Virus record (IMG/VR): IMGVR_UViG_3300032092_000201
Coordinates: 1-26,718 of that record
DNA: 26,718 nt
Strand: one strand, 5' to 3'
Origin: a virus
The notes under the pieces: model-generated
The model's input: the letters and a program-made list of their open reading frames with translations, nothing else
The model's database searches: none
What the model was told of the DNA's origin: nothing
Program-made: the position numbers and the translations under genes
In this document: positions 685-26,505 of the stretch, one piece after another
Layout of the letters: each line of letters starts with the position of its first letter
Position numbering within the stretch: position 1 is the stretch's first letter

Positions 685-896
685 TCTTTTATTATTTTAT
701 AGATTCCTATTACATTTAATACTATGATAATGATACTAAGAACCATATGGCTTATGTTATCAATATATAGGTCATAAGCGATCCATCCAATATCGCCTAC
801 GATCCATGCTAGCATTGCTGGGAGATATCTCTTTTGGCTATTAAGATAATACCCGGTCAATACTAACATGGTGCATATCCAACTTACTGTTTCCAT
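681..896 (-). CDS. Small three-helix membrane protein, PnuC/PQ-loop-like half
   Basis: This 71-residue protein is almost wholly membrane-embedded, with hydrophobic segments near residues 3-18, 26-44 and 48-68. The pattern of an aromatic-rich first helix, a G-x-x-x-W-x-x-Y second helix and a short polar loop resembles one three-helix repeat of small PnuC- or PQ-loop-type proteins, but this is a weak impression. A single repeat would have to dimerise. The start codon overlaps the stop of the VWA gene (TAATG), so it is coupled to it. Confidence 0.6.
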   Translation of the reverse strand: METVSWICTMLVLTGYYLNSQKRYLPAMLAWIVGDIGWIAYDLYIDNISHMVLSIIIIVLNVIGIYKIIKE

Positions 897-3139
897 TATG
901 CTACTTCTAAAAATTTATCATTCATTGTCTTGGCTACTTCAAAAATACTTTCTACATTCACAAATGCCGAATCCTTACCATACATCTGTCTAAACATCTT
1001 ACCAGATCTGCTACCGGCATCTTCATACTCACTAATGAAGTAACTCAATACCTTGATACCTTCATACTGCATTTTTCTAACTTGGGTACCGGTATGCTTG
1101 GCAGCACCAGCTCCATGATAGCTATCATAACATGGTTCACCATCACTAAAGTTAATGAAATATGAATCCTTACCACGGCTGGACGATACGATATCTTTCA
1201 TGATGGCATCAAAACATAATCCTTCTGGAGTACTACCAGATGGAATAAACCATGGCATATGACTTCTCAATTGCGTTACACTATGCTTACGACTATCATA
1301 GGCATAAACAATTGCCGGATAACTAGTACCATTGAAATGCGTTCCGGATCGGAATGTAATCACACAATCCATATTCTCAATCATACTACATGCCTTGGCA
1401 ATTGCCGTAGCCGTTACTATGGACTTACGCATCTTACTACCACCCATACTACCACTAGAGTCAATACTGATATGTATCATACTTGGCTTATAAGAAAAGG
1501 TTTCTAACTTCTCAAATATATTCTCCATACCATAACCAGCATTGGCAATCATTCGTTTATCAATCTTACCAGACGCTAATCGATTGAACTTGGTACTACG
1601 ATCTTCGTTACGAACTTTCAACTTACGTCCTAACATATGTCCTAAACGAATACCTTCATCAACTGCCTTTGTTCTATCACTACCACCATATCTATTAGTC
1701 GGTTCAGACCATAAACCACATGACAACTCATCGGCAATCTTAGGAGTAAAGTTACGAATCACCAATACCTTGGTACTCTGCTTTTTAGCTTGACCATGCC
1801 AATCATAATCGTCATACTTTACTTCATGAAGTTCAGCGCCTGCCTCATCTACACTATTAACAGCATCGGCATCCTTTCTAGACATTTTAGTCTTCTTCAT
1901 ATCACCATCAACAACTTTCTTCTGTTCACGAATGCTCTTCAAAAGCTTCTCACGCTCCCTAGCTGACAGCTCTGGCAGGCCGGATGTTCCCAACTCATCT
2001 TCTTCACTATCACCATTACTACCAGATCCTTTACCATTACCTGACTCACTGGACTTGGTAGGATCATCGCCTTCGGCATCACCATCGGTATCATCGGTGT
2101 CATCACTATCTGGAGAATTCTGTCCGGTACCTTGACCTTTCATATTGTCATCAGTATTTGGAATATCAAAATTCTCTGGGTCAATATCACCACCTCCACC
2201 ATTCTGGTTCTTTGAAGTACCCGGCTGGTCTGTATCACCTTGATCCGGCGTACCACCATCCGGATCTTCAGACTGGAACGGCCTTACAATATTACTTTGG
2301 ATGATACTAAAGATCTGAGCTGCTACCTTAAAGGCATCTTCGCTATTCTTCATGCGCTTGATATTGGCTAGGTCAAATACATTCCAGATCTCTGTCAACC
2401 CTTTAAGCGCTTTCAAGTCACGATTAGGATTGGTTATGTTAATCAAACGGAACATATATGACTCCCATTCTTCATCACGATACTCAGATGACTTAAGACC
2501 CTTATCAATAATTGGAAGGTTGAAATACTTGTCATACAATGCTTGGTAATAGGCCTTATAACCCGGCGCGGTAGTATACACAAAATAATCAATACGTCGG
2601 TCCTCAACAATATTGAACACATCTTTTAATGAAGTGGACCACTTATATGCTACTTGTTTCAATGCCGCAAGCTTCTGACTATCACTAGCATTCTCAGGGT
2701 CGGGGTGGCCTACATAATTAGCTAAGAGACGATACATGTCTGCCTTTGCCCATTCAGGTAAGTTATTAACATCAATATCTTCGCCAAACAAAACAACCAT
2801 GGTCTTCGCTACATAGTCAGTTGTAAACAAACTAAAATCGGTTAACTTGCAATGCGATCCTTCATGAAGGGCTAACCCAACATTAACATCAAACTTAGCA
2901 GGATCCGTTGAAGTTGAAATGGTTACCTCTTTACCATTAGTATAAGAATCCTTACCTGTACTAAAACGTACTGGAATGTTCTCACCAGTTACAATCCTAA
3001 CAAAGTTAGATACGGCTCTACGGTATCCACTCAATTGTATTAGGTCCTTACCATTCTCTTCAACACGGTCTAGGAACTCATCATTTAACCAAAAACTAGA
3101 AGCCATTGCTGGCTTGGTGGGCTTTTTAAACTTCTTCAT
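896..3139 (-). CDS. VWA-domain protein with zincin-like HExxH, CobT-like
   Basis: This 747-residue protein has three parts. The N-terminal part carries H92-E-G-S-H96 in LALHEGSHCKL and an E-D-R motif at 178-180, a pattern seen in the metallopeptidase-like domains fused to VWA (DUF2201/CobT-type families). An Asp/Gly/Ser-rich low-complexity linker spans about 288-390. The C-terminal VWA domain has a complete MIDAS: D559-x-S561-x-S563, a later GSTPEG threonine and an FSDGEP aspartate. Such proteins work with MoxR/CobS-type AAA+ ATPases, and one is encoded immediately upstream (3275-4435). CobT itself is a cobaltochelatase subunit, but no cobalamin gene is present, so a chaperone or remodelling role is more likely. 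It has its own promoter at 3159-3190. Confidence 0.9.
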   Translation of the reverse strand: MKKFKKPTKPAMASSFWLNDEFLDRVEENGKDLIQLSGYRRAVSNFVRIVTGENIPVRFSTGKDSYTNGKEVTISTSTDPAKFDVNVGLALHEGSHCKLTDFSLFTTDYVAKTMVVLFGEDIDVNNLPEWAKADMYRLLANYVGHPDPENASDSQKLAALKQVAYKWSTSLKDVFNIVEDRRIDYFVYTTAPGYKAYYQALYDKYFNLPIIDKGLKSSEYRDEEWESYMFRLINITNPNRDLKALKGLTEIWNVFDLANIKRMKNSEDAFKVAAQIFSIIQSNIVRPFQSEDPDGGTPDQGDTDQPGTSKNQNGGGGDIDPENFDIPNTDDNMKGQGTGQNSPDSDDTDDTDGDAEGDDPTKSSESGNGKGSGSNGDSEEDELGTSGLPELSAREREKLLKSIREQKKVVDGDMKKTKMSRKDADAVNSVDEAGAELHEVKYDDYDWHGQAKKQSTKVLVIRNFTPKIADELSCGLWSEPTNRYGGSDRTKAVDEGIRLGHMLGRKLKVRNEDRSTKFNRLASGKIDKRMIANAGYGMENIFEKLETFSYKPSMIHISIDSSGSMGGSKMRKSIVTATAIAKACSMIENMDCVITFRSGTHFNGTSYPAIVYAYDSRKHSVTQLRSHMPWFIPSGSTPEGLCFDAIMKDIVSSSRGKDSYFINFSDGEPCYDSYHGAGAAKHTGTQVRKMQYEGIKVLSYFISEYEDAGSRSGKMFRQMYGKDSAFVNVESIFEVAKTMNDKFLEVA

Positions 3140-3158
3140 ATTTTTTAAATTTATTTCA

Positions 3159-3190
3159 TAAAATTAAGTACAAACTCTCATATAACCAAA
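3159..3190 (-). promoter_or_regulatory. Promoter A, for the VWA operon
   Basis: On the minus strand a TTTG (-33) is followed by 20 nt and TAATTTTA (-7), then TGAAAT. A GTAAC box (GTTAC on the plus strand, 3206-3210) lies exactly 15 nt upstream of the -33 element. The ATG of the VWA gene is about 20 nt downstream of the -7 element. It belongs to a family of eight promoters in the window with identical spacing. Confidence 0.7.
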
Positions 3191-3217
3191 GCTTTTTTAA
3201 GAAAAGTTACTTTTACC

Positions 3218-3268
3218 AATGATTTGGGGGGAGCGAAAGCCCTAAAAACGCTACCCCCCACCATCATT
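3218..3268 (-). terminator. Strong hairpin after the AAA+ gene
   Basis: A long stem pairs AATGAT with ATCATT, six G with six C, and AGCG with CGCT, closed by a 13-nt loop. It starts 6 nt past the AAA+ stop codon and precedes promoter A. No clear U-run follows, so it may act as a terminator, an RNA-stabilising 3' end, or both. Confidence 0.7.
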
Positions 3269-3274
3269 TGGCTA

Positions 3275-4435
3275 TTAAAATGGCATATTTGAATTAACAG
3301 GAGCTCCGGTATTGAAAATATCTTCTTCTACCTTAGCACCACAATACTTTTGAACTACCTGCTTAACATAGGTACGCTCAGAATCCAATCCACCAGCATC
3401 ATCAAAGAATGGATAGATACATACTTCGGCCGCTTCGCCTAAGCTAAAACCATCTTCAATCAATCCAGCAATCTCAACACACAAACGCGTACTCACAGCA
3501 CTGGTTAACTTTGGACTTTCGGATCGGCACTCCTTTCTGGTAATGGCCGCAATCTCGGCAATATCAGCTGCGATCTGGTTATCTAAATTCGGATGTAACA
3601 TTTTCAACAAGGATGCCTCATTAACAGCATCTAATGCTTCCATCTCAATAATAATGAATCGATCCACCAAGGCACGGTCCATCACACGAGTCGCGGTATA
3701 CTCAGTACCAATGTTAGCTGTTGCAATAAAGGTAACACCTGGCGCTACCGCAATGGTAGGAGCATCTTGGTGCTCATCTAAGCGTAAATATCTTTGTCCT
3801 GGATCCAATACCGTCATCAAGATATTCCAAGCCTCAGGATGCGCTCTGCTCAACTCATCCAATAGGATAACGGCATTCTCGGTCTGAATGGCTTTCACAA
3901 ATACGGACTCACAAAAGGTAGTACCGGTATCCTTCTTGAAGTGGGTGTTACCAATCAAAGTACCTCTTGGATCCTGAGTGGCTCCTAAGTTAAAATAGAA
4001 ATCTGGACGATTCAAAGCCGTAACCAAGGTCTTGGCAGCTTGGGTCTTACCAGTACCAGCAGGCCCGGTCATCATAATGTTCTTACCTCTCATAGCCGAC
4101 CTAACCAAATATTTCCACTTAAGGTCTGGCATAATTAATGTCTTTGGCTTGAGGCCTACTGCCTCGTTATGAACAAAATTCAATACTGGATTCTCCATCA
4201 TTTCTTGTTTAGGCGCTACTGGCGCATTGGTTACTTTATTTTTATGACCGGTGGACTTGATACGCTTGGCTCTACCTGTATCGGTATTGAACTCAAGCAA
4301 CTCACCGCGGTCTGAAGCTATCTTGGCAATACTATCTCGGATGGCTACTGCCTCATAAGCATTAGTATCAACATTAACAAACTTCCATGACTTTGAGTTG
4401 GCAATAAACTCGGGCTTAACAATAACTGTTTTCAT
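3275..4435 (-). CDS. MoxR/CobS-type AAA+ ATPase
   Basis: This 386-residue AAA+ ATPase has Walker A GPAGTGKT at 124-131, Walker B ILLDE at 190-194, and a DRALVDRF segment typical of the arginine-finger region. The first ~100 residues are a poorly conserved basic N-terminal region. MoxR-family ATPases form hexamers that remodel partner complexes through VWA-domain adaptors, and the gene just downstream (896-3139) is such an adaptor, so the two probably act together. CobS of aerobic cobaltochelatase is the best-known relative, but nothing else of that pathway is here. It has its own promoter (4469-4500) and a strong hairpin behind it. Confidence 0.92.
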   Translation of the reverse strand: MKTVIVKPEFIANSKSWKFVNVDTNAYEAVAIRDSIAKIASDRGELLEFNTDTGRAKRIKSTGHKNKVTNAPVAPKQEMMENPVLNFVHNEAVGLKPKTLIMPDLKWKYLVRSAMRGKNIMMTGPAGTGKTQAAKTLVTALNRPDFYFNLGATQDPRGTLIGNTHFKKDTGTTFCESVFVKAIQTENAVILLDELSRAHPEAWNILMTVLDPGQRYLRLDEHQDAPTIAVAPGVTFIATANIGTEYTATRVMDRALVDRFIIIEMEALDAVNEASLLKMLHPNLDNQIAADIAEIAAITRKECRSESPKLTSAVSTRLCVEIAGLIEDGFSLGEAAEVCIYPFFDDAGGLDSERTYVKQVVQKYCGAKVEEDIFNTGAPVNSNMPF

Positions 4436-12834: not shown

Positions 12835-13938
12835 TTATTTTTTTTCTTGTGTTGCATACTTAATACCCATAATTGTACCAACTATTGAAAATGCATTTGT
12901 TAATAAGACACTAAACATGTTACTCCAAGTAGAGCCAATAATCTGGGTGTCTTGATTGGTTATGATAGCCATCCAGTACAAGCCTGTCGTTACAATTCCA
13001 ACCCCAACTATAACAGCCAAAGCAACTTTAACAATAATTTTAATCAGTTCACTTTGACTTTTTTTCATCATGACATCCAAGTCATTCAAAGCTGCATCCT
13101 TTTCTATCTCTATTGCATTTTTAAGTTTTTCTGAATTAGCTAACTCTATTTGCAAATTATTTGAAAGGTCATCTATTTTCTTCTTATCGTTTATCGCATC
13201 AGTAACATCAGTTGCAATCTTAACTACATCGGTAATATTTCCTTCGCTATCAAACACCGGATTGTAAGATGCTTGTAGATATACAATAGACCCATCTACC
13301 TTTCTTCTTTCAAATACTCCATCAAAATACTTACCCTTTCTTAATGTTTCCCAAAACTTTGCATACTCATCAGTTTTAGAATACTCGTAACTAACAAAAA
13401 TGCTATGATGTTTTCCAACGACTTTATCTTTTTCATTGGATTTATATCCCATGGTTTCTAAAAAGATAGAATTAACATCTGTTATGAAACCTTCAGTATT
13501 AAAACTAATAAGAGCGGTACTTCTGTTAATTGCATCTATTTGCTTCTTACTACTAACTATTTCACTGATGTCGGTAGCAATCTTCATTATCTTGGTAATC
13601 TTATTATCCTCGTCAAAAATAGGATTATAAGTTGCTTGGAGATTGATAAGACTTCCATCCTTTTTTCTTCTCTCAAACTCACCTTGATAATATTTACCAC
13701 TCCTTAATATATCCCAAAATTTTTCATATTCAAGCGATCTTGCATAATCTTCGCATACAAAAATGCTATGTTTTCTGCCAATGATATCAGCATGATTACC
13801 TTTACCATAGCCCATCGCTTCTAGAAAAATATCATTAACACCTAATATAACTCCATTCAGATCAAAGTATATAATAGCGTTACTTCTATTGATTGCTTCA
13901 AGTCTGCTTAGTAGTTCTTCTTTTGATAAGTTTTTCAC
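12835..13938 (-). CDS. Tandem-PAS membrane protein without output domain
   Basis: This 367-residue protein has PAS domain 1 at about 15-125 and PAS domain 2 at about 135-247. Both carry AINRS, VN-x-IFLE-x-MGY, HSIFV and FERRK-x-DGS, and each ends in a PAC-like segment (KIATD). A coiled coil follows at about 250-300, then two transmembrane helices at about 301-325 and 340-360. PAS domains of this subtype sense flavin, haem or redox ligands in Aer-like chemoreceptors, but no kinase, HAMP or receptor signalling domain follows. The two PAS units are an internal duplication. It starts one base inside the stop of the upstream gene and is in the long operon. A phage-encoded sensor anchored in the membrane is unusual, and its output is unknown. 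Confidence 0.85.
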   Translation of the reverse strand: MKNLSKEELLSRLEAINRSNAIIYFDLNGVILGVNDIFLEAMGYGKGNHADIIGRKHSIFVCEDYARSLEYEKFWDILRSGKYYQGEFERRKKDGSLINLQATYNPIFDEDNKITKIMKIATDISEIVSSKKQIDAINRSTALISFNTEGFITDVNSIFLETMGYKSNEKDKVVGKHHSIFVSYEYSKTDEYAKFWETLRKGKYFDGVFERRKVDGSIVYLQASYNPVFDSEGNITDVVKIATDVTDAINDKKKIDDLSNNLQIELANSEKLKNAIEIEKDAALNDLDVMMKKSQSELIKIIVKVALAVIVGVGIVTTGLYWMAIITNQDTQIIGSTWSNMFSVLLTNAFSIVGTIMGIKYATQEKK

Positions 13939-24304: not shown

Positions 24305-24309
24305 GTTAG

Positions 24310-24383
24310 TGCGCCTTCCTGGGATCGAACCAGGCACCTACTGATTATGAGTCAGTTGCTCTAACCGAATGAGCTAAAAGCGC
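24310..24383 (-). tRNA. tRNA with CAT anticodon (Met, or Ile if modified)
   Basis: The 74-nt cloverleaf has acceptor GCGCTTT paired with AAGGCGC, D-arm AGCTCATTCGGTTAGAGC, anticodon arm ACTGA-CTCATAA-TCAGT with CAT at 24347-24349 (plus ATG), T-arm CCTGG-TTCGATC-CCAGG and discriminator A. CCA is not encoded. It reads AUG as elongator Met, or AUA if the wobble base is lysidine-modified. Confidence 0.88.
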
Positions 24384-24387
24384 TAAA

Positions 24388-24429
24388 TGAGTGCAGCGGG
24401 GCTGCAGACCCCTGAGGCTCCTGCACTGA
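24388..24429 (-). ncRNA. Minihelix-like hairpin (acceptor + T-arm shape)
   Basis: On the minus strand AGTGCAG pairs with CTGCACT (7 bp). Inside, GGGG-TCTGCAG-CCCC forms a stem with a 7-nt loop placed just before the 3' strand, as a T-arm is placed before an acceptor strand. Only about 8 nt lie where D and anticodon arms would be. It might be a tRNA-like minihelix or a processing signal between tRNAs. Confidence 0.45.
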
Positions 24430-24444
24430 GTTGATCCTCTTTAG

Positions 24445-24543
24445 TACTCAAGATTGGACTTGCACCAACATGTTCTTTCGAACTCGTTACCTTAGCGTCT
24501 ACTATCGGGTTTACCATGGTAACCTCGCTTCCGCCACTTGAGC
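24445..24543 (-). tRNA. tRNA-like element A, aberrant core
   Basis: The 99-nt element has acceptor GCTCAAG/CTTGAGT, T-arm GTTGG-TGCAAGT-CCAAT and discriminator A, plus a variable-arm-like hairpin GTTC-GAAA-GAAC. The core has Leu-type D-arm ends (GTGGCGGAA ... GTAGACGC) separated by an extra ~27 nt containing a GGTTACC/GGTAAACC hairpin. No ordinary 5-bp/7-nt anticodon arm follows. It could be a degenerate tRNA-Leu, a tRNA with an insertion, or a dedicated tRNA mimic. Confidence 0.5.
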
Positions 24544-24548
24544 ATTTG

Positions 24549-24620
24549 TAGTCGGTACGGGAATCGAACCCGTGTTACCAGAATGAAAATCTGGTGTCCT
24601 AACCCCTAGACGAACCGACC
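24549..24620 (-). tRNA. tRNA-Glu (TTC)
   Basis: The 72-nt cloverleaf has acceptor GGTCGGT/ACCGACT, D-arm region TCGTCTAGGGGTTAGGAC, anticodon arm CCAGA-TTTTCAT-TCTGG with anticodon TTC, T-arm ACGGG-TTCGAAT-CCCGT and discriminator A. Its first seven bases overlap the 3' end of the upstream Lys-rich protein gene. Confidence 0.92.
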
Positions 24621-24994: not shown

Positions 24995-25862
24995 ATTCAG
25001 CCTGAGACTACAGCTTCAATGTTAGGTCTTTTGTCGGATTATGTTTTCCCTTCTTGTCCACCAACTTTTGGTTGGTATCCTAACAATGCCGGTGATTTAA
25101 GTACACCACTCTTTGAGTCACTTTTTTGGACTACTCACCCTCTACTTATTCTATTCAACCCTGCCGGGCTAATTAACTCTTGCGGAGCTATAGACCTTTC
25201 AAAGATATCACCTTAGACTTGCGGCCTTTGGTGGCAATGGACAACCCATTACTGTGTAGGCATCTTTCGTCCGTGACTGGTAAGCGCTTTTGCTTTTCAT
25301 TATTAGTTTTGCTAATCATGCAAAAGGTTTGGTCGCAGATGCTGAAAGTAGTGGCTTACCTTTAAGCTAACCCATCTTTTGAACGAGTCAATACTCAACT
25401 ACTCTCTGAAGTGTCCCCACCTCCATACTTTAAGAATTCTTCATGACACATGCCTTGGTAGGCTAAGGTCAAGGTAAGTAACAGCACCACCTGTACTCTT
25501 ACATGCCTTTCGGCTTTAAGATCTCTCTTGTATTGGAACCCGTAATCATATACTTGGATAAGCATATTTCTCACGTGGAAGTTCCTATAGGTTATTCTTA
25601 TTGCTCTTCCGAGCTCAACCAGATGACCTGCATCACCTAGTCACCAATCCACTTCCCTTACAGTGTCACCCTCAGGTACAAAGGATCAATGATATCCTAC
25701 TTGCCTACTCGAGCTCCGTTCGAAGCCGCAAACCATATTAACCAATACGATTCACATTATCCTGGTTTCCCAGTTTATTTAACGACCATAGGCGGCCGAC
25801 TATCATTTATCAGATTAAATGTCTCATAATCAACCCGAAGGTCTCATAATCAACTACTGAAT
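24995..25862 (-). ncRNA. Large structured non-coding RNA candidate, 868 nt
   Basis: No convincing ORF exists here. The ends pair: ATTCAG (25857-25862) with CTGAAT (24995-25000), and TGAGAC (25841-25846) with GTCTCA (25003-25008). Internal helices include a three-tier arm (25279-25285/25354-25360, 25287-25293/25320-25326, 25302-25306/25312-25316), GTTAGG/CCTAAC (25021-25026/25079-25084) and 25804-25809/25816-25821. GNRA tetraloops lie at 25762-25773 (GAAA), 25505-25514 (GAAA) and 25603-25614 (GGAA), and a UUCG loop at 25833-25842. A family promoter lies ~45 nt upstream and tRNA-Met follows 8 nt downstream. Size, ornate folding and tRNA neighbours recall GOLLD and ROOL RNAs of phages; I cannot assign the class by sequence. 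Confidence 0.75.
25821..25854. repeat. Two 14-bp direct repeats in the RNA 5' end
   Basis: GTCTCATAATCAAC occurs at 25821-25834 and 25841-25854 (plus strand), 6 nt apart; the spacer with flanks forms the UUCG hairpin. In the minus-strand RNA each copy reads GTTGATTATGAGAC, which is complementary to the anticodon loops of both CAT tRNAs nearby. Confidence 0.7.
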
Positions 25863-25905
25863 GGATAATAATATTTCAAAGAACTTATCTCTCTCAATTA
25901 TTTCA

Positions 25906-25937
25906 TAAATATAAGTACAACTTTTTGATTTACCAAA
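25906..25937 (-). promoter_or_regulatory. Promoter G, for the structured RNA and tRNA cluster
   Basis: The minus strand reads TTTG, 20 nt, TATATTTA, TGAAAT. It directs transcription into the large RNA and then the tRNAs. It lacks the long operator array of promoters C-F, so it may be constitutive or use a different control. Confidence 0.68.
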
Positions 25938-25964: not shown

Positions 25965-26108
25965 TTAATACTCTTGTTTATCAAGTTTCCACTTGCGGCA
26001 TGCTAACTTCTTAGCTTTCTTTTTGCGATCTGCGTACTGCTTAGGAGCGAATCGACCATCAAAGAAGCCGGCTTCGATTCTAAGCTCTCTATCAGATGCT
26101 TTTGCCAT
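25965..26108 (-). CDS. Small highly basic protein, 47 residues
   Basis: The protein has 47 residues from the ATG at 26108 (MAKASDRELRIEAGFFDGRF), with a Lys/Arg-rich second half (DRKKKAKKLACRKWK). An upstream ATG at 26129 would place the start at or before the expected transcription start of promoter H, so the internal ATG is preferred. The FFDGRF-x-P core followed by a basic tail looks like a small conserved phage protein. It could bind nucleic acid. The stop lies 28 nt before promoter G's -33 element. Confidence 0.65.
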   Translation of the reverse strand: MAKASDRELRIEAGFFDGRFAPKQYADRKKKAKKLACRKWKLDKQEY

Positions 26109-26135
26109 TTTAAACAATTTCTTATTCATCTTTCA

Positions 26136-26193: not shown

Positions 26194-26340
26194 CAGTCAG
26201 GACAGGACTCGAACCTATAACACCAACCAGTAACTCCTCAGGTCATCATGCCTTTGGTCGTCGTTGGACTTACTTGTAGCGTCTAACCAAATCAACTCCG
26301 TCGGCTTAAGCTTCCAGAGCAAACATTCCGCCACCTGACT
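26194..26340 (-). tRNA. tRNA-like element B, 147 nt, expanded core
   Basis: It has a perfect acceptor AGTCAGG/CCTGACT and a T-arm ATAGG-TTCGAGT-CCTGT. Leu-type D-arm ends (GTGGCGGAA ... TTAGACGC) are separated by about 35 extra nt. A further ~60-nt stretch follows, with TTTGGT/ACCAAA and CCAAC/GTTGG pairings instead of a normal anticodon arm. It is about 60 nt longer than a type II tRNA. It shares both ends with element C. Confidence 0.5.
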
Positions 26341-26417: not shown

Positions 26418-26505
26418 TAGTCAGGACAGGATTCGAACCTGTATGAATGATTGGTTTCGCTTTCATCCAATTACCACTCACTAGCTACCATAACGCCACC
26501 TGACT
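26418..26505 (-). tRNA. tRNA-like element C, 88 nt, 12-nt central loop
   Basis: The acceptor AGTCAGG/CCTGACT is identical to that of element B, and the T-arm is ACAGG-TTCGAAT-CCTGT with discriminator A. A D-arm TGGC/GCTA with a GTTATGGTA loop is possible. The middle contains ATTGG/CCAAT closing a 12-nt loop instead of a 7-nt anticodon loop. It could be a tRNA with a small insertion or an evolved mimic. Confidence 0.55.

What the first reader, a model, noticed from the sequence alone, without database searches (positions are those of the whole stretch)
24995..25862. An 868-nt ornate RNA with its own promoter beside a tRNA cluster
The block has no real ORF. Its ends pair in two helices, and inside are a three-tier arm and at least four stable tetraloops (GAAA twice, GGAA, UUCG). 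It sits between a family promoter and a tRNA. GOLLD (~800 nt) and ROOL (~600 nt) are large phage-borne RNAs that often neighbour tRNAs and assemble into multimeric cages. This could be a divergent member or a new class.
Basis: partly seen in the sequence, partly recalled or inferred. Interest (0 to 1): 0.87.

Follow-up and report, generated by a model that had tools for sequence, protein, structure and literature searches.

The report
Phage GOLLD RNA with rRNA-like leader
This stretch of a bacterial virus genome encodes a GOLLD, a known kind of giant RNA that builds hollow RNA cages; it is a new member of that family, and it and all 32 distinct relatives checked begin with the short signal that bacteria use to transcribe ribosomal RNA without interruption.

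Summary
The block is real and is a GOLLD RNA (Rfam RF02032) on the minus strand: 268.1 bits against a cut-off of 150, E about 1e-75, all 416 model positions. It is not ROOL and not a new class. Rfam models only the conserved 3' domain (24999-25406). About 90 viral homologues were found; in a non-redundant set both halves are supported by covariation (72 of 99 pairs in the 5' domain and 67 of 89 in the 3' domain have compensatory changes). The gene has a Bacteroidota-type -33/-7 promoter and ends 11 nt before a tRNA-Met. Beyond the claim: 33 of 33 non-redundant members carry GTTCTT[TA][GA]A between promoter and RNA body (0.04 expected), mostly preceded by a covarying hairpin. GTTC[TA]TTGA lies upstream of 16S rRNA in 21 of 26 Bacteroidia leaders, so this is very probably an rrn-type boxA (NusB/S10 antitermination). 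A mycobacterial GOLLD has a boxA matching its own genome's rrn spacer. Several other GOLLDs and three ROOLs lack it. No report of this link was found in the held library. Verdict: new member of a known family with one testable, apparently unreported regulatory feature.

The parts
25906..25937 (-). Promoter, Bacteroidota -33/-7 type: TTTG (25937-25934), N20, TATATTTA (25913-25906); predicted start of transcription about 25899
   Evidence: TTG-N-TAnnTTTG conserved at this place in most homologues
25876..25884 (-). boxA-like element GTTCTTTGA in the leader
   Evidence: 33 of 33 non-redundant members, 0.04 expected per 320 nt; same 9-mer in Bacteroidia rrn leaders
25407..25869 (-). GOLLD 5' domain (not covered by the Rfam model)
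   Evidence: homologous ahead of about 70 viral 3' domains; 72 of 99 pairs compensated in 31 sequences over its conserved part
24999..25406 (-). GOLLD 3' domain, RF02032
   Evidence: 268.1 bits, model 1-416/416; 67 of 89 pairs compensated in 33 sequences
25299..25329 (-). Variable A/U-rich linker inside the 3' domain; no tRNA in it here. Corresponds by position to the disordered linker of the solved GOLLD (inference)
   Evidence: columns 83-132 of alignment A2 vary in length and sequence; coordinates
25178..25184 (-). Loop CCGCAAG with self-complementary GC, probably equivalent to kissing loop L21a (inference)
   Evidence: GC replaced by CG in five members of A2; switch described in PMC12286853
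24911..24987 (-). tRNA-Met (CAT), 11 nt downstream of the GOLLD 3' end; probably co-transcribed
   Evidence: relative L135 has the same order
24548..24620 (-). tRNA-Glu (TTC) of the same cluster
24309..24383 (-). second tRNA-Met (CAT anticodon) of the cluster

Best explanation
The block is the gene for a GOLLD RNA of a large phage, probably of a Bacteroidota host. SHOWN by computation: RF02032 membership of the 3' domain; covariation-supported folding of both domains; a -33/-7 promoter; a boxA-like element in the leader of every non-redundant member; a tRNA directly downstream. INFERRED: host RNA polymerase starts near 25899; boxA in the nascent leader recruits the host's NusB-S10 rRNA antitermination complex, so the roughly 900-nt untranslated RNA and the tRNAs behind it are made without Rho cutting them short; RNase P cleavage at tRNA-Met sets or trims the 3' end; the RNA folds into a 5' cap domain and a 3' ring domain and assembles into a homo-oligomeric cage like the solved GOLLD 14-mer. 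What the cage holds or does is unknown for any GOLLD; holding or delivering phage tRNA or another cargo is the leading suggestion in the literature.
For: cmscan 268.1 bits, cut-off 150; covariation; fold z -4.85; promoter; motif in 33 of 33 members against 0.04 expected; same motif upstream of 16S rRNA in 21 of 26 Bacteroidia leaders; hairpin upstream of the motif with strands that change together in about 25 members; three members keep hairpin and motif with a tRNA-Met in place of the promoter; mycobacterial GOLLD L377 with GTTGTTTGACAAGTG against GTTGTTTGAGAAGTG in the rrn spacer of the same genome; boxA upstream of other long untranslated RNAs (PMC7862264, PMC12691694); cage structure of GOLLD env-38 (PMC12286853).
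Against: No transcript, NusB/S10 binding or cage has been measured for this RNA. boxA is missing near GOLLD in Mycobacterium phages Weiss13 and Send513, Streptococcus phage Javan636 and two Acinetobacter phages. The window itself lacks the upstream hairpin. The host is not identified directly.
Confidence: 0.8

Rival explanations
1. It is a GOLLD, but GTTCTTTGA is not a boxA: it is another conserved part of the RNA or of the phage's own control, for example a pairing partner inside GOLLD or a site for a phage protein.
For: In most members the motif can pair 9/9 (G-U allowed) with the conserved 3'-domain segment CUCAA(A/G)GAGUGGU; it is kept where the promoter is replaced by a tRNA.
Against: Variants of the motif are not compensated on the 3' side, about 0.1 such match per RNA is expected by chance, and the 3' segment is conserved in GOLLDs without the motif. 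The match to rrn boxA, and the host-matched variant in L377, are not explained.
Confidence: 0.15
2. The copy is a decayed GOLLD remnant in a phage fragment.
For: It scores lower than several relatives (268 against 282-322 bits), and the leader hairpin is missing.
Against: The whole model and the whole 5' domain are present with promoter and boxA, and paired positions keep pairing in the alignments.
Confidence: 0.04
3. It is ROOL or a new class of large RNA.
For: Similar size and tRNA neighbourhood.
Against: Full-length RF02032 match; no ROOL match at E up to 1.
Confidence: 0.01

Closest known systems
GOLLD RNA (Rfam RF02032), including GOLLD env-38, 833 nt, cryo-EM 14-mer (PMC12286853)
   Same: 3' domain matches all 416 model positions; a separate 5' domain of about 420-460 nt; similar total length; phage genome; next to tRNA-Met; self-complementary loop with the GC/CG switch.
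   Different: Leader with an rrn-type boxA, which I did not find described; tRNA-Met lies downstream here, whereas env-38 lies downstream of its Met-tRNA; no tRNA in the linker. The oligomer is untested.
rRNA operon leaders of Bacteroidota (rrn boxA)
   Same: Same 9-mer GTTCTTTGA ahead of a long untranslated RNA; several rrn leaders also have a hairpin just upstream.
   Different: The downstream RNA is phage GOLLD, not 16S rRNA; antitermination is inferred.
CRISPR arrays with boxA leaders (reported in PMC7862264 and PMC12691694)
   Same: boxA ahead of a long untranslated RNA.
   Different: A phage gene, not a host defence array.
ROOL RNA (RF03087)
   Same: Large phage RNA near tRNAs that forms a cage.
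   Different: Unrelated sequence and structure; no ROOL match in the window; three lactobacillal ROOLs show no boxA in the stored flanks.

Membership tests
GOLLD (RF02032) | Match above the curated gathering score over the conserved 3' domain | tested here: met
   268.1 bits against 150, model 1-416/416
GOLLD (RF02032) | Helices of the 3' domain supported by covariation among homologues | tested here: met
   67 of 89 predicted pairs with compensatory changes, 33 sequences; RNAalifold counts, not an R-scape test
GOLLD (RF02032) | A less conserved structured 5' domain ahead of the 3' domain | tested here: met
   5' domain homologous in about 70 contigs, 72 of 99 pairs compensated
GOLLD (RF02032) | Phage or prophage location near tRNA genes | tested here: met
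   virus record; tRNA-Met 11 nt downstream
GOLLD (RF02032) | Self-complementary loop L21a with GC/CG switch | tested here: inconclusive
   loop CCGCAAG here, CG form in five members; equivalence to L21a inferred from position
GOLLD (RF02032) | Assembly into a 14-mer cage | not testable with these tools
   needs mass photometry or cryo-EM
ROOL (RF03087) | Match to the ROOL covariance model | tested here: not met
   no match at E up to 1
rrn-type boxA leader | boxA sequence of the host group between promoter and RNA | tested here: met
   33 of 33 members; same motif in 21 of 26 Bacteroidia rrn leaders; host group itself inferred from promoter type
rrn-type boxA leader | Hairpin upstream of boxA | tested here: not met
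   absent in the window; present in about 25 of 33 members. Not required for boxA function
rrn-type boxA leader | NusB/S10 binding and antitermination | not testable with these tools
   needs binding and reporter assays

The most novel reading that the evidence does not exclude
Phage GOLLD RNAs in Bacteroidota, and some elsewhere, are transcribed with the host's ribosomal-RNA antitermination machinery, each copying its host group's rrn boxA. GOLLD would then join rRNA and CRISPR arrays as another natural class of long untranslated RNA under boxA control, tying synthesis of the RNA cage to NusB/S10 during infection.
Probability: 0.65. Interest if true: 0.62.

Novelty: new member of a known kind. 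Interest (0 to 1): 0.46.

Why it matters
GOLLD cages have a solved structure but no known role and, in what I could read, no described control. A conserved boxA leader suggests how a cell makes a 900-nt untranslated phage RNA in quantity, gives a nine-base handle to turn GOLLD down in an infection, and links it to the ribosome-synthesis machinery. The 33-member set also supplies covariation for the 5' cap domain, which Rfam does not model.

Tried and rejected
ROOL or new class: rejected. Helix joining the two ends: not conserved. boxA as an internal pairing partner: possible 9/9 pairing but not compensated, judged coincidence. boxA as a feature of all GOLLDs: rejected; not found near GOLLD of Weiss13, Send513, Javan636 and two Acinetobacter phages. 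boxA in ROOL: not seen in three lactobacillal cases. GOLLD in cellular genomes by the loop pattern: 114 matches, none confirmed by the profile. Lactobacillales GOLLD search failed for machine reasons. A Rhodobacteraceae rrn leader to check the boxA of DSS3_MAL1: no 16S match returned. The first loop pattern was too loose and gave mostly chance hits. Cultured phages with this 5' domain: none in the phage collection, only two uncultured megaphages.

Full report
What is there. The minus strand of 25869-24999 encodes a GOLLD RNA. cmscan against Rfam 15 gives RF02032 at 24999-25406 (-), 268.1 bits (cut-off 150), E about 1e-75, model positions 1-416 of 416. The Rfam model covers only the conserved 3' domain. 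The upstream half, 25407-25869, is also homologous to other GOLLDs: the window's upstream 556 nt finds it in about 70 viral contigs directly ahead of their 3' domains, and blastn finds it in two uncultured megaphages.

Homologues. A DNA pattern from the loop GGAAA..ATAATC...CAAAAG retrieved 107 stretches in IMG/VR; together with an earlier, looser pattern, a profile search confirmed about 90 GOLLD 3' domains. The 114 pattern matches in prokaryote genomes were all negative. After removing near-duplicates (95%), 33 members, the window among them, cover leader, 5' domain and 3' domain. Several related contigs are 116-322 kb long and carry a thymidylate synthase mostly 58-69% identical to the window's, so the window is probably a fragment of a large phage. 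The promoter type points to a Bacteroidota host; the host itself is not identified.

Structure. RNAalifold on 31 aligned 5' domains gives 99 pairs, 72 with at least one compensatory change; on 33 aligned 3' domains, 89 pairs, 67 compensated. These are counts over related sequences, not an R-scape test. The window RNA alone folds with z = -4.85. The helix said to join the ends (AUUCAG with CUGAAU) belongs to the window sequence: of 23 members with the 5' motif only two, the window included, make six pairs with their 3' tail; the 5' segment can pair nearby instead, in the 5' domain (the nearby test searched a longer stretch and is weak by itself). A loop in the 3' domain carries a self-complementary GC, replaced by CG in five members, the switch described for kissing loop L21a of the solved GOLLD 14-mer (PMC12286853); my mapping of that loop is an inference.

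Transcription unit. The window has TTTG-N20-TATATTTA at 25937-25906, of the Bacteroidota -33/-7 type (established knowledge of that phylum's promoters), and similar elements ahead of three other minus-strand genes. Downstream, tRNA-Met begins 11 nt after the GOLLD model ends; the relative L135 has GOLLD, tRNA-Met (16 nt on), tRNA-Glu in the same order. RNase P cutting at tRNA-Met is a natural way to make the 3' end; this is inference.

The leader. Aligning the homologues showed a motif between promoter and body that stays while everything around it changes. GTTCTT[TA][GA]A occurs in 33 of 33 members, 38-147 nt ahead of the conserved core; 0.04 would be expected per 320 nt from the same contigs. 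Mean information is 1.89 bits per position in the motif, 0.58 upstream and 0.40 downstream. The pattern fixes seven of the nine positions (all but the seventh and eighth), so their invariance is by construction, but the presence in all 33 is not. The members are related, so they are not 33 independent events. About 25 have a small hairpin directly upstream whose two strands change together (TCGGA/TCCGA, CAGG/CCTG, TTCTC/GAGAA, TAAGG/CCTTA, TGAGG/CCTCA); the window lacks it. In three members a tRNA-Met stands where the promoter would be, and hairpin and motif are still kept.

What the motif is. It matches the boxA of ribosomal RNA operons. GTTC[TA]TTGA lies upstream of 16S rRNA in 21 of 26 Bacteroidia genomes examined, and three of the five misses have under 200 nt of leader in the record (positions). 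The longer match is close too: L157 GTTCTTTGACATATTG against GTTCTTTGAAGTATTG in rrn leaders L365, L366 and L368. A chromosomal GOLLD of an actinobacterial genome, Mycobacteriales-like by its rrn operon (L377, 144.5 bits, just under the cut-off), starts with a strong hairpin and GTTGTTTGACAAGTG; a sequence in the record around that genome's 16S gene, in the position of the 16S-23S spacer, has GTTGTTTGAGAAGTG. Phage DSS3_MAL1 has a hairpin and GCTCTTTGACAATTTGG ahead of the tRNA cluster that contains its GOLLD, but its host's rrn could not be checked. boxA binds NusB-S10 and protects long untranslated transcripts such as rRNA and CRISPR arrays from Rho (PMC12691694, PMC7862264).

Limits. No boxA was found near GOLLD in Weiss13, Send513, Javan636 and two Acinetobacter phages, nor ahead of three lactobacillal ROOLs, so this is a feature of the window's group with scattered cases elsewhere. 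Lactobacillales GOLLDs could not be searched. The held papers show no text that joins GOLLD or ROOL with boxA (the four GOLLD+boxA hits are unrelated plant papers; one search found none), but most subscription papers, including the 2009 paper that described GOLLD, are not held. Binding, antitermination and cage formation need experiments.

Verdict. The 'new class' alternative and the end helix fall. The apparently unreported boxA leader is the part worth a specialist's time.

Noticed in passing
window 26418-26505, 26194-26340 and about 24428-24545 (- strand): Three tRNA-like elements that ARAGORN misses: 26418-26505 scores 30.2 bits for tRNA and 26194-26340 scores 23.9. They have good acceptor and T arms but an enlarged anticodon arm or D loop; the third, found by eye, has little room for an anticodon arm. 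Decayed tRNAs, tRNAs with inserts, or tRNA mimics; no similar D-loop insert was found in the related loci.
   Followed up: partly
L133 1028-7903: A phage GOLLD between a tmRNA gene and about 25 tRNA genes, i.e. nearly a full tRNA set.
   Followed up: no
L384 91-2525 (phage DSS3_MAL1): Hairpin plus GCTCTTTGACAATTTGG ahead of a tRNA cluster that holds a GOLLD with a tRNA-Arg inside it and a tmRNA just after it.
   Followed up: partly
L377 1090-1953: GOLLD on the chromosome of an actinobacterial genome with a tRNA inside its linker, a strong hairpin and boxA at the 5' end.
   Followed up: yes
window 12835-13938 (-): Phage protein with two PAS domains and probable membrane segments at the C-terminus, unusual cargo for a phage.
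   Followed up: no
window 896-4435 (-): MoxR-type AAA ATPase next to a large protein matching a phage 'cobalamin biosynthesis' (CobT-like) family, a pair like MoxR plus vWA chaperone systems; best phage relatives are an uncultured huge phage and Microcystis phage Mel-JY01.
   Followed up: partly
window 25965-26129 (-): 54-aa lysine-rich ORF between the GOLLD promoter and the upstream tRNA-like element, with its own promoter of the same type.
   Followed up: no
window 25108-25116 (-) with 25876-25884 (-): boxA can pair 9/9 (with G-U) with a conserved 3'-domain segment in most members; variants are not compensated, so probably chance.
   Followed up: partly
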